Below, in pieces: positions 203 to 6,694 of a stretch of 6,694 nt of DNA. Position numbers and translations under genes: made by a program. The stretch's first letter is position 1, and each line of letters begins with the position of its first letter. The notes beneath the pieces were generated by a model, which had not been told where the DNA came from, searched no databases, and saw only the letters and a list, made by a program, of their open reading frames with translations. The DNA comes from a bacterium (lineage in GTDB: Bacteria > CSSED10-310 > JAJRTK01): contig JAJRTK010000299.1 in NCBI GenBank assembly GCA_024278345.1, forward strand, positions 1-6,694. The letters run 5' to 3'.

Positions 203-298
203 CCTTCGAGTCACGCGAGGCGTGACCCTTCGAGTCACGCGAGGCGTGACCCTTCGAGTCACGCGAGGCGTGACCCTTCGAGTCACGCGAGGCGTGAC
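203..298. repeat. Four perfect tandem 24-nt palindromic repeats
   Basis: Four identical 24-nt units lie head to tail at 203-226, 227-250, 251-274 and 275-298. Each unit is CCTTCGA followed by the perfect inverted repeat GTCACGC-GAG-GCGTGAC (7-bp arms, 3-nt centre). There are no spacers, so this is not a CRISPR. Because 24 is a multiple of three, every frame through the array stays open on both strands, giving long but spurious open frames. The copies are identical, which implies recent expansion or homogenisation, perhaps by slippage at the hairpins. Function is unknown; an iteron-like or protein-binding array is possible. Confidence 0.9.
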
Positions 299-709: not shown

Positions 710-740
710 GGAGGGAACGGAAGAGATGAAGCGTCCAGTG

Positions 741-902
741 GGGACCTATCAGATCCGGTTGACAAGTTCACGCCCGAAACGAACCCACCGTTCAAGTTCG
801 TGAATCCCGGTCGGCCCGCCACCGGCAAGATGCCGGTGCCACCAGTGCGGCAGTGCGGCAGTGCGGACTGTAAAGCGGAATCGTGTGGATTTGATAGGTC
901 CC
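741..902. mobile_element. 162-bp MITE-like element with 8-bp target duplication
   Basis: The element begins GGGACCTATCAGATCC and ends with its near-perfect inverted copy (GGATTTGATAGGTCCC): 11 exact terminal bases, 15 of 16 overall. GTCCAGTG lies immediately outside both ends (733-740 and 903-910), the signature of an 8-bp target-site duplication. The interior has no plausible gene. It holds the palindrome CACCGGCA-AGA-TGCCGGTG (820-838) and three tandem CAGTGCGG units. A second copy starts at 6554. An element this short cannot move itself; a full-length insertion sequence with matching ends must supply transposase. Eight-base duplications are known from IS families such as ISL3, IS6, IS66 and IS256, but I cannot assign one. 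Confidence 0.85.
843..866. repeat. Three tandem 8-nt units inside the MITE
   Basis: CAGTGCGG is repeated exactly three times. The copy of the element at 6554 lacks this array at the equivalent place, so it is a private expansion in this copy. Confidence 0.85.
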
Positions 903-966
903 GTCCAGTGGACGGTTCCGCCGTTCCCCACCGATTTTTTTTCGCTTCGCGTTTTTGGGAGGGGCT

Positions 967-1176: not shown

Positions 1177-1205
1177 TTGACAATTTGTGGAGGATTATGG
1201 ATATT
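1177..1205 (+). promoter_or_regulatory. Possible sigma-70 promoter
   Basis: A perfect TTGACA (1177-1182) is followed after 17 bases by GATATT (1200-1205), which matches four of six bases of the -10 consensus. Transcription would start near 1212, just before the AGGAGGT ribosome site, giving a leader of about 20 nt. The same GGTTGACAA string occurs near the left end of both MITE copies, so the -35 match could be repeat-derived. Confidence 0.4.
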
Positions 1206-1213
1206 TGCATGGT

Positions 1214-1220
1214 AGGAGGT
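1214..1220 (+). promoter_or_regulatory. Strong Shine-Dalgarno that sets the MerR-PilZ start
   Basis: AGGAGGT lies 11 bases before ATG 1232. It favours that start over an in-frame GTG at 1187, which has no comparable site and would sit upstream of the proposed -10 box. Confidence 0.7.
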
Positions 1221-1231
1221 GTCTGAGAAAA

Positions 1232-1636
1232 ATGGAAGAAAGGCTCTACTCAATCGGCAAAGTTGCCAAAATGATGGGCTGCTCGGTTGCGACGCTGCGC
1301 CGGTGGGAAAAAGAAGGCAAAATCCGATCGGTCAGAACCCCGGGAGGACACCGGAAATTTCCCAAGGAAGTTCTCGATAGGCTTCTGGGTGGCGAGCCAT
1401 CCTGGGACCACGGATCGGCTTCGGCACATTCAATTTCCATGGCGGAACGGCGGCGTTTTTTTAGAGTGACCACGGAGATACCCGTTCACATGGTGGTGCC
1501 TCGGTCGGGAAAACGTGCAACCCGCGAGCTCGACGGCCTGGTCAAAAACCTCAATGTAGCGGGTGCGTTTATTGGTACTGACACTCCCATTTCCGCGGCC
1601 GAGCACCGGGACATTGTTCTCGAGCTCGGCGGCTAG
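1232..1636 (+). CDS. MerR-type HTH / PilZ protein, ended by an in-frame amber
   Basis: The translated part is 134 residues. Residues 4-52 form a MerR/excisionase-type winged helix-turn-helix: YSIGKVAKMMGCSVATLRRW, then the wing motif RTPGGHRKF at 35-43, typical of MerR-like DNA readers. After a short linker a PilZ domain starts near residue 72, with the c-di-GMP-binding RxxxR at R74-R78. The second PilZ motif reads N106-L-N-V-A-G111, so the usual serine of [D/N]xSxxG is asparagine and affinity may be altered. TAG at 1634-1636 cuts the domain before its last strands, but the same frame continues with recognisable PilZ sequence to 1789. The intact form would be a DNA-binding regulator responding to c-di-GMP. 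The product as terminated probably has a misfolded PilZ half. Similarity is by motif only. Confidence 0.8.
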   Translation: MEERLYSIGKVAKMMGCSVATLRRWEKEGKIRSVRTPGGHRKFPKEVLDRLLGGEPSWDHGSASAHSISMAERRRFFRVTTEIPVHMVVPRSGKRATRELDGLVKNLNVAGAFIGTDTPISAAEHRDIVLELGG

Positions 1637-1789
1637 CTTCCAGGTGTTCGTCTTGAGGGCCGGATTGTCTGGTACAGTCGGGAGAAGAAGAATACGTTCG
1701 GCTTTCGCTTTGGAGTTGGCGTCGAGTTTACCGATCTTGCTGAACGCGAGGCCGAAATTATCGCCGAGTTCTTGCTGGAACAGGATTGA
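1637..1789 (+). pseudogene. C-terminal PilZ segment beyond the amber codon
   Basis: In the frame of the preceding gene, with no shift, 50 sense codons run from just after the TAG to a TGA at 1787-1789. They read LPGVRLEGRIVWYSREKK, then a short link, then GFRFGVGVEFTDL. This is what the second half of a PilZ domain should look like (LPG....GxVxW...GVGVEF.DL), ending in a helix AEIIAEFLLEQD. No ATG or GTG with a ribosome site lies inside, so it is not an independent gene. The full protein would be 185 residues counting the amber position. Causes could be a recent nonsense mutation, a sequence error or programmed readthrough. TAG ends neighbouring genes, so a reassigned code is unlikely. Confidence 0.75.
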
Positions 1790-1859: not shown

Positions 1860-1934
1860 GGCGGTCACTGGCTGAAAGGCCGAGGATCGTGCCGCGGGTT
1901 TCTTGGGCGCCGGTCATGGCTGGCCGCTTCGATG

Positions 1935-1974
1935 GGTGGGGAACCGGCGGAACCGTCCATTGGATGCTTCCTCT
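1935..1974 (-). repeat. Inverted, MITE-free relative of the insertion site
   Basis: This segment matches the complement of the sequence flanking the MITE at 741-902, read straight across the insertion. GGTGGGGAAC and GGCGGAACCGTCCA match the right flank (932 back to 907), and TGGA, GCTTC and TCT match across the junction into the left flank. By hand count about 36 of 39 aligned bases agree, with one single-base gap. The position corresponding to the 8-bp duplication is CATTGGAT, present once. The insertion target is therefore itself a dispersed repeat. Confidence 0.7.
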
Positions 1975-1987
1975 TCAGCGTTTCGTG

Positions 1988-5474: not shown

Positions 5475-5490
5475 ATGAGTTGAAGAAGAG

Positions 5491-6408
5491 CTAACGTTCG
5501 GTTCCGGGTCGATGGCGAAGATCGGAAAGTTGGACCACCTGATCCGGGGCTTCCAATTCGTAAGGAAATGCTTCCCCGGGCGCGGGATCTTGGCTTTCGC
5601 TCGGTCGCATCAAAGTCAGGGTCACCGCGTTGCCTCTGTCGTTGTAGTGGAAATCGTCCACCAGAATGGATGCCAGAAAAATGCCCCGCTCCAGGAGTTG
5701 ATGACGCTCCAGATTCGTGAGATCCGAGATGACTTGCTGCGTGTCGAAGCCATCGCCTTCGTCTTCGATGGTGATCTGAAACTTGTCTGGATCAAAGGAG
5801 TAGCGTAGGGTGATGAAGCGATCCTCCCGCCCCTTGTTCCCGTGGAGTTGCGCATTCATGAGCATTTCATCGAGGACGACTGACAGATTCGACAAAGTCT
5901 GATCGTCGTCGAAGCCTCGCCATTGGCAATCCTTTAGAATCGACAAAATGATCGATGGAAAGCTGTGGGGGAAATTGGGGATGCGGGCTTCTGAGTAGTG
6001 TTTGGCATGTTGCTGGATTTGATACGCGCCTTGGCTCAGATCCCGTAGGCGCAGTCCTTTTTGTACCGCCGATTCAATGTCGCTGATCCTTATCGGCTTC
6101 GAGAGGAACGTAAACGCTCCGAGGTTCAGTGCTTTGACCGTATCCTGCACTGTTCCGTGGCCCGATAGGACCGCAACGGGAATCCTCGGGTTGTACTCCT
6201 TCACCCTCTTGACCAGCTCAAGGCCATCCATCCTGGGCATGTAAAGATCGGTAAGAACAAGGTCGATGGCTTGGTTCTTCACAATCTCAAGCGCCTCTTT
6301 CCCGTCGCGGGCACTCACGGCTTCGATACCGAACTCCTTGAGATATGTCGCCAAGAGATCACGAACCATGGAGTCATCGTCCACTACGAGGACTAGGGTC
6401 TTTCGCAT
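5491..6408 (-). CDS. REC - HATPase (RsbW-like) response regulator
   Basis: From ATG 6408 the protein has 305 residues. Residues 4-120 are a complete REC domain: acidic pocket D10-D12, phosphoacceptor D54 (TDLYMPRMDG), S82 and K104. After a linker, residues 150-268 form a GHKL ATPase fold of the anti-sigma/serine kinase type. It has an N-box with E181 and N185 (DEMLMNAQLHGN), G1 box DEGDGFD at 216-222, and a G2-like region ERGIFLASILVDDFHY then GNAVTLT. There is no HisKA domain, so it is not an ordinary hybrid kinase. Phosphorylation probably controls an RsbW-like output that binds or phosphorylates an anti-sigma antagonist. The C-terminal 35 residues are acidic and proline-rich. Earlier in-frame starts exist (6423, 6453), but a GGGA nine bases upstream and REC alignment favour 6408. 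It is transcribed towards the bamD operon, with no partner gene beside it. Confidence 0.85.
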   Translation of the reverse strand: MRKTLVLVVDDDSMVRDLLATYLKEFGIEAVSARDGKEALEIVKNQAIDLVLTDLYMPRMDGLELVKRVKEYNPRIPVAVLSGHGTVQDTVKALNLGAFTFLSKPIRISDIESAVQKGLRLRDLSQGAYQIQQHAKHYSEARIPNFPHSFPSIILSILKDCQWRGFDDDQTLSNLSVVLDEMLMNAQLHGNKGREDRFITLRYSFDPDKFQITIEDEGDGFDTQQVISDLTNLERHQLLERGIFLASILVDDFHYNDRGNAVTLTLMRPSESQDPAPGEAFPYELEAPDQVVQLSDLRHRPGTER

Positions 6409-6553: not shown

Positions 6554-6694
6554 GGGACCTATCAGATCCAGTTGACAACATCACCGCTGGGGCGGGCCTC
6601 CTTCCCGGCTCCGTGCAGCCCGGAGGGCGCTACACCGGCAAGATGCCGGTGCCACCGTTTCGGCGAAGAAAATTGTAAAGCAAAAACACGACAA
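6554..6694. mobile_element. Second MITE-like copy, cut off by the window end
   Basis: It opens with GGGACCTATCAGATCC and matches the copy at 741 in 24 of the first 25 bases. The interior diverges. Then the palindrome CACCGGCA-AGA-TGCCGGTG (6633-6651) and following GCCACC are identical, and TGTAAAGC recurs near the end. By comparison with the first copy, about 14 bases including the right inverted repeat lie beyond the window. Orientation is the same as the first copy, and the left flank sequence is unrelated, as expected for independent insertion. Confidence 0.8.

What the first reader, a model, noticed from the sequence alone, without database searches (positions are those of the whole stretch)
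733..910. Compact MITE-like element with exact 8-bp target duplication
Seen directly: 11 exact terminal inverted bases (GGGACCTATCA; 15 of 16 with one mismatch), flanked precisely by GTCCAGTG on both sides, 162 bp long, no gene inside, and a second copy elsewhere in the window. The internal CACCGGCAAGATGCCGGTG palindrome resembles a motif I recall as scattered through many environmental bacterial genomes (recollection, unverified). If so, this may explain how such palindromes spread: as cargo of a non-autonomous transposable element.
Basis: partly seen in the sequence, partly recalled or inferred. Interest (0 to 1): 0.75.

Follow-up and report, generated by a model that had tools for sequence, protein, structure and literature searches.

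The report
MITE family carrying a REP-like hairpin
This is one of roughly 140 or more copies of a tiny, gene-free jumping element in an uncultured bacterium; it carries a widespread bacterial DNA hairpin inside it and so multiplies that hairpin around the genome, although in the other genomes examined the hairpin is not inside this element.

Summary
Observation confirmed. Window 741-902 is a 162-bp element with 11/11 (15/16) terminal inverted bases and an exact 8-bp duplication (733-740 = 903-910). Its host MAG (6.06 Mb) holds 275 GGGACCTATCA sites versus 0 for the reversed pattern. In a 1.03-Mb sample, 73 full-length copies (61 of 154 bp) were found; 60 of 71 with both flanks have 7-8 of 8 duplicated bases, against 1.3% after re-pairing flanks. 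The window itself contains a paralogous empty site. The two young subfamilies lie 1.4-1.7% from consensus; one copy is nested in another; B/C chimeras transposed as units. This is a MITE family, moved in trans presumably by a DDE transposase. No autonomous partner was found.

The central palindrome has REP anatomy: GTGG tag (132 of 136), 8-bp stem, 3-nt loop, compensatory stem changes. In this genome all stem-forming copies in the sample lie in the MITE. In other genomes the same core is GTAG- or GGAG-tagged and dispersed alone; once it flanks a RAYT gene on both sides. So the MITE spreads the hairpin here, but this does not explain its spread elsewhere.

Ordinary as a MITE; the REP-type hairpin as its most conserved internal part is unusual. 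Partner transposase and host name remain unknown.

The parts
733..740 (.). left copy of the target duplication GTCCAGTG
   Evidence: sequence; single copy in the paralogous empty site
741..902 (+). MITE copy, subfamily A, 162 bp
741..756 (+). left terminal inverted repeat GGGACCTATCAGATCC (first 11 exact, 15 of 16 in all)
   Evidence: pair I4; mean identity 0.97 over its first 11 bases among 14 diverged copies
758..765 (+). subterminal motif GTTGACAA (GTTTACAA in old copies), candidate transposase-binding site (inferred)
   Evidence: invariant T20, A22-A25 in alignment
820..838 (-). REP-like hairpin CACCGGCA-TCT-TGCCGGTG (read on the - strand)
   Evidence: fold (z -4.6); compensatory changes; mean core identity 0.99
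839..842 (-). GTGG tag directly 5' of the hairpin (CCAC on the + strand)
   Evidence: 132 of 136 stem-forming copies in the sampled genome
842..868 (+). 8-bp units GCAGTGCG; one unit more than the 154-bp subfamily A copies, which explains the 162-bp length (another copy, C484, has one more and is 170 bp)
   Evidence: subfamily A sequences
869..875 (-). inner subterminal motif TGTAAAG (CTTTACA read inward from the right end)
   Evidence: alignment
887..902 (-). right terminal inverted repeat
903..910 (.). right copy of the target duplication GTCCAGTG
   Evidence: sequence
1932..1982 (-). paralogous empty target site, one copy of the 8-mer (ATCCAATG) and no element
   Evidence: alignment
6554..6694 (+). 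second MITE copy, subfamily C, cut by the contig end; left flank TCTCCATC
6633..6651 (-). the same REP-like hairpin in the second copy (GTGG tag = 6652-6655)
   Evidence: sequence

Best explanation
The element is a MITE: a non-autonomous DNA transposon of about 154 bp whose ends (11-16 bp inverted repeats starting GGGACCTATCA, then an inner GTTKACAA motif) are cut and joined in trans by a transposase encoded elsewhere, most likely of the DDE type because each insertion duplicates exactly 8 bp of target. Two subfamilies (B, C) amplified recently. Its centre is a REP-type hairpin: a GTGG tag followed by an 8-bp stem with a 3-nt loop. The hairpin rides along as a passenger, so MITE transposition has multiplied it to about 250 core copies in this genome. 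Shown: ends, exact 8-bp duplication, empty site, copy number, nested and chimeric copies, confinement of the hairpin to the MITE in the sampled sequence, and stem covariation. Inferred: DDE chemistry, trans mobilisation, and descent of the hairpin from a REP element.
For: 275 GGGACCTATCA sites versus 0 for the reversed pattern. 59 full pairs within one spacing range. Duplication 8/8 in 52 and 7/8 in 8 of 71, re-paired control 1.3% for 7 or more; base match is about 0.9 at offsets -8 to -1 and background outside. Paralogous empty site in the window. Nested copy with both duplications, C533 5367-5682 around 5487-5640. Contig ends broken in a copy whose other half lies on another contig with the same 8-mer: C232/C419, C498/C403, C176/C105. 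B and C copies 1.4% and 1.7% from consensus. Hairpin: 143 core motifs in or near MITE copies, GTGG tag 132 of 136, 3 pairs changed on both sides, 96.4% of cells paired versus 34% or less when slid. REP type: GTAG-tagged same-core hairpins on both sides of a RAYT gene in genome G323 (NCBIfam NF047646, E 2.4e-36); REP heads are GT(A/G)G (PMC2817692, PMC3733652).
Against: No autonomous element with the same ends was found in 1.03 Mb of the genome or at sampled contig ends; IS1595, ISL3 and ISKra4 remnants are present without these ends at their borders. The transposase class therefore rests on duplication length and end form alone. The only RAYT-like gene found in the host (C390) has no such hairpin nearby, so the REP reading rests on anatomy and on other genomes. 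About half of the 1.03 Mb was chosen because it held copies, so the in/out ratio of the hairpin is not from an unbiased sample.
Confidence: 0.8

Rival explanations
1. The ends are mobilised by the RAYT (Y1 tyrosine) transposase, i.e. the element is a RAYT-associated TIR element and the hairpin is its recognition site.
For: The single RAYT-like gene found in the host (C390) starts 24 bp after a decayed copy of the element and is followed about 300 bp later by another element end. Di Nocera et al. describe RAYT genes flanked by long TIRs (PMC3733652). The hairpin carries a GTGG tag like REPs.
Against: IS200/IS605-type enzymes do not make target duplications (established knowledge), while an exact 8-bp duplication is seen in most copies. 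The RAYT-like gene scores below the NCBIfam cut-off and its coding sequence holds inserted repeats. At about one copy per tens of kb, one adjacent copy can be chance.
Confidence: 0.06
2. The palindrome is not a REP passenger but an integral part of the MITE, such as a transposase accessory site or an RNA-stabilising hairpin that keeps insertions harmless; its likeness to REPs in other genomes is convergent.
For: It is the best conserved internal part of diverged copies: mean core identity 0.99, tag 0.96, flanking interior 0.73-0.81, with compensatory stem changes.
Against: The 11-base core GGCARGATGCC and a G-rich tag are shared with dispersed hairpins of unrelated genomes, more than convergence on a generic hairpin would need. 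No terminator-like U run was found.
Confidence: 0.25
3. The 8-bp repeats and inverted ends are a chance or assembly artefact in a fragmented MAG.
For: 550 contigs; many contig ends fall inside copies (46 edge-truncated).
Against: Zero control matches, exact 8-bp offset profile, empty site, and diverse flanks for more than 50 copies inside contigs. The breaks are what repeats cause.
Confidence: 0.01

Closest known systems
IS-derived bacterial MITEs such as MITEAba12 (113 bp, 16-bp TIRs, 9-bp duplications, parent ISAba12; PMC6382973) and MITEPsy1 (PMC3189936)
   Same: Short, no gene, terminal inverted repeats, fixed-length target duplication, many near-identical copies
   Different: Parental IS unknown here; different ends; 8-bp duplication; carries a tagged REP-like hairpin as its most conserved internal part
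REP elements / REPINs and RAYT transposases (PMC2817692, PMC3116915, PMC3733652)
   Same: The central hairpin: GT(A/G)G tag, stem with compensatory changes, very short loop, high copy number
   Different: Here nearly all copies sit inside a DDE-type MITE with target duplications, rather than dispersed alone or next to a RAYT gene
GTAG-15 REP dimers inside long palindromes of Anabaena variabilis (PMC3733652, section on association with other repeats)
   Same: REP hairpin regularly found inside a longer inverted-repeat sequence
   Different: That section reports no target duplications, empty sites or subfamilies for the host palindrome; the present element is clearly a transposon

Membership tests
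MITE (non-autonomous DDE transposon) | short (under about 300 bp), no coding capacity | tested here: met
   73 full-length copies of 148-170 bp; no gene found inside
MITE (non-autonomous DDE transposon) | terminal inverted repeats at the copy boundaries | tested here: met
   59 exact pairs; duplications abut the ends
MITE (non-autonomous DDE transposon) | target duplication of fixed length, empty sites | tested here: met
   8 bp, 60 of 71 copies with 7-8 matches; paralogous empty site
MITE (non-autonomous DDE transposon) | multiple copies at unrelated sites | tested here: met
MITE (non-autonomous DDE transposon) | parent IS with the same ends and a DDE transposase | tested here: inconclusive
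   none in 1.03 Mb sampled; IS256 absent, IS1595/ISL3/ISKra4 remnants without these ends at their borders; MAG 87.9% complete
REP element (central hairpin) | GTAG or GTGG tag 5' of the palindrome | tested here: met
   GTGG in 132 of 136
REP element (central hairpin) | stem with compensatory variation and short loop | tested here: met
REP element (central hairpin) | dispersed extragenic unit on its own in the genome | tested here: not met
   in the sampled host sequence all stem-forming copies lie in or next to MITE copies; met in other genomes
REP element (central hairpin) | associated RAYT gene flanked by the hairpin | tested here: inconclusive
   met in G323; the only RAYT-like gene found in the host lacks the hairpin within the locus fetched

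The most novel reading that the evidence does not exclude
MITE and REP hairpin form a lasting partnership: selection keeps the tagged hairpin in the MITE (near-invariant core and tag, compensatory stem changes across diverged copies) because it helps the element, so that one DNA unit can be served by two unrelated transposition systems (DDE and RAYT), or the hairpin acts in the MITE's own replication or silencing.
Probability: 0.12. Interest if true: 0.8.

Novelty: new variant of a known kind. Interest (0 to 1): 0.48.

Why it matters
REP hairpins occur in many bacterial phyla and their movement is usually put down to RAYT enzymes. A REP-type hairpin that is multiplied by an ordinary transposon, with target duplications and an empty site as signs of movement, shows a second route of spread inside a genome and gives a datable, countable system. 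It also warns that hairpin counts alone do not show RAYT activity.

Tried and rejected
Transposase families searched in the whole host genome: IS256 PF00872 (none); IS1595 PF12762 (two fragments; the region they share begins GGCTCTATATGCGATCC, no GGGACCTATC ends); ISL3 PF01610 (remnants; one lies about 700 bp from a MITE-type left end, not bounded by it); ISKra4 NF033572 (weak fragments without these ends). Long end pairs 0.4-5 kb with a 6/8 or better duplication in the sample: one poor candidate, rejected. Other collections: no match to the inner-end pattern in genome contigs or viral contigs; the end-pair pattern gave 4 stretches in genome contigs, read and rejected: a coding-like triplet repeat, two stretches of short palindromic repeats in a Hyphomonadaceae MAG without 8-bp duplications, and one long inverted repeat. 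59 other genomes: no copy. Literature search for the core sequence: only unrelated hits.

Full report
What was checked. The element lies at window 741-902. Its 11 outer bases are exact inverted repeats, 15 of the outer 16 match, and GTCCAGTG stands directly on both sides (733-740, 903-910). Such a combination occurs once in the window and never in 200 Markov sequences. The second copy (6554-6694) belongs to another subfamily and is cut by the contig end.

The genome. The window is a whole contig of a 6.06-Mb, 550-contig MAG, 87.9% complete; seven genomes of its phylum, but none of its family, were among those searched. GGGACCTATCA occurs 275 times, its reversed control 0 times; 59 exact inverted pairs 140-170 bp long exist, which suggests roughly 140 or more copies once single ends are counted (estimate). 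I read 1.03 Mb of the genome, about half of it chosen because it held copies. It contains 73 full-length copies, 61 of them 154 bp. Of 71 with both flanks, 52 have 8 of 8 duplicated bases and 8 have 7 of 8; re-paired flanks reach 7 or more in 1.3%. Base agreement is about 0.9 at the 8 positions next to the element and at background immediately beyond, so the duplication is 8 bp exactly.

Independent signs of movement. (1) The sequence around the insertion has a paralogue in the same window (1932-1982, minus strand) without the element and with a single copy of the 8-mer. (2) At C533 a copy sits inside another copy, both with their own duplications. (3) Several contigs end inside a copy and another contig begins with the other half and the same 8-mer. 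(4) Four B/C chimeras carry B bases at all or all but one of 31 left diagnostic sites and C bases at nearly all right ones; the switch lies in the 24 identical bases that include the hairpin, and three of the chimeras have perfect duplications, so the chimera itself transposed. (5) Copies of B and C are 1.4% and 1.7% from their consensus. Insertion sites lie in ORFs of at least 150 aa less often than random sites (17 of 31 versus 83%, Fisher p = 0.0004). The 162-bp length of the window copy comes from one extra 8-bp GCAGTGCG unit; a sister copy of 170 bp has two extra.

Mechanism. Fixed-length duplication with GGG-starting inverted ends is the signature of a DDE transposase acting in trans. 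Several IS families make 8-bp duplications (ISL3, IS1595, IS6, IS256, ISAs1, some ISKra4; own knowledge). IS256 is absent; IS1595, ISL3 and ISKra4 remnants exist but are not bounded by these ends. No autonomous copy was seen. One lead: two loci (C395, C390) share 101 bp at 95% identity that begins with a copy of the left end and then differs from the MITE; this may be the edge of a longer relative.

The palindrome. Read on the minus strand the centre is GTGG-CACCGGCA-TCT-TGCCGGTG. Among 14 diverged members (72% mean column identity) the core is 0.99 and the tag 0.96 identical, like the left terminal repeat, while the rest of the interior is 0.73-0.81. Three of the four outer stem pairs change on both sides; 96.4% of cells pair, against 34% or less when the partner is slid. 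These copies share ancestry, so the counts are not independent events. The GTGG tag precedes 132 of 136 stem-forming hairpins. In the sampled sequence 143 core motifs lie in or near MITE copies; of 6 outside, 3 belong to a tandem array within one MITE copy (C116) and 3 are single matches without a stem.

Elsewhere. With the degenerate pattern SSGGCARGATGCCSS, a few of 385 other genomes show strong excess over control: 172 versus 1, 64 versus 1, 27 versus 0, 25 versus 0, 20 versus 0. Stems there are almost always self-complementary but differ between genomes. Reading 10-30 copies in each of four genomes shows the hairpin dispersed alone or in REP-like pairs, with unrelated flanks, and tags GTAG (33 of 35 in G323, 8 of 11 in G039) or GGAG (10 of 10 in G146); G359 is more mixed. 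In G323 such hairpins stand on both sides of a RAYT gene (NF047646, E 2.4e-36). Enrichment next to RAYT-type genes in the other genomes was weak: most of the loci fetched had no such hairpin, and the G146 gene with one nearby is an IS200-type transposase rather than a RAYT. GT(A/G)G is the published REP head (PMC2817692, PMC3733652). So the palindrome is best read as a REP-type hairpin. A decayed MITE copy lies 24 bp before the RAYT-like gene of the host, which may be chance.

Judgement. The larger idea, that MITE carriage explains the spread of such palindromes, holds here only. A second MITE-like family in the same genome carries four other hairpins, so hairpin carriage may be a habit of this genome. 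Known kind (MITE) with an unusual, conserved REP-type module; hence new variant of a known kind.

Noticed in passing
host genome C481:2873-3072, C5:335-535, C413:37-237, C123:3359-3557, C546:10580-10814: A second MITE-like family of mostly about 200 bp, ends GGCCTCGGTCATGGTACCGGCCAC, 8-9 bp target duplications, packed with four different hairpins; one copy interrupts an ISL3 transposase gene and several interrupt copies of the first family.
   Followed up: partly
L337 (C390) 824-988 and 1012-1737: The only RAYT-like gene found in the host has a decayed copy of the MITE 24 bp upstream of its start; that copy has a different central hairpin (GGACAGTCGTCTCGCCTGTCC), like the second hairpin type of genome G146. 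The gene itself contains inserted repeats.
   Followed up: partly
L102 (C395) 2347-2447 and L337 (C390) 2033-2133: Two loci share 101 bp starting with the MITE left end but with a different interior; possible edge of a longer or parental element.
   Followed up: partly
L046 (C28) and L116 (C116) near the contig ends: MITE copies in which the palindrome is tandemly amplified with about 31-35 bp periods; C116 has a different stem (CAGCGGCAGGATGCCGCTG).
   Followed up: partly
G146 and G039 loci L290-L309: Composite elements of about 60 bp with two hairpins (loops GTCTC or TTCCA, and AAGAT) bounded by inverted GGGAG or GTAGGAG ends recur in unrelated genomes.
   Followed up: no
window 203-298 and 299-375 / 1000-1074: Four tandem 24-bp palindromic units, and a repeat of about 75 bp present twice around the MITE and in 27 of 170 sampled segments.
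   Followed up: no
window 1187-1789: MerR-type HTH gene followed by what looks like a PilZ-type region (not confirmed by a Pfam match), interrupted by an in-frame TAG at 1634-1636.
   Followed up: partly
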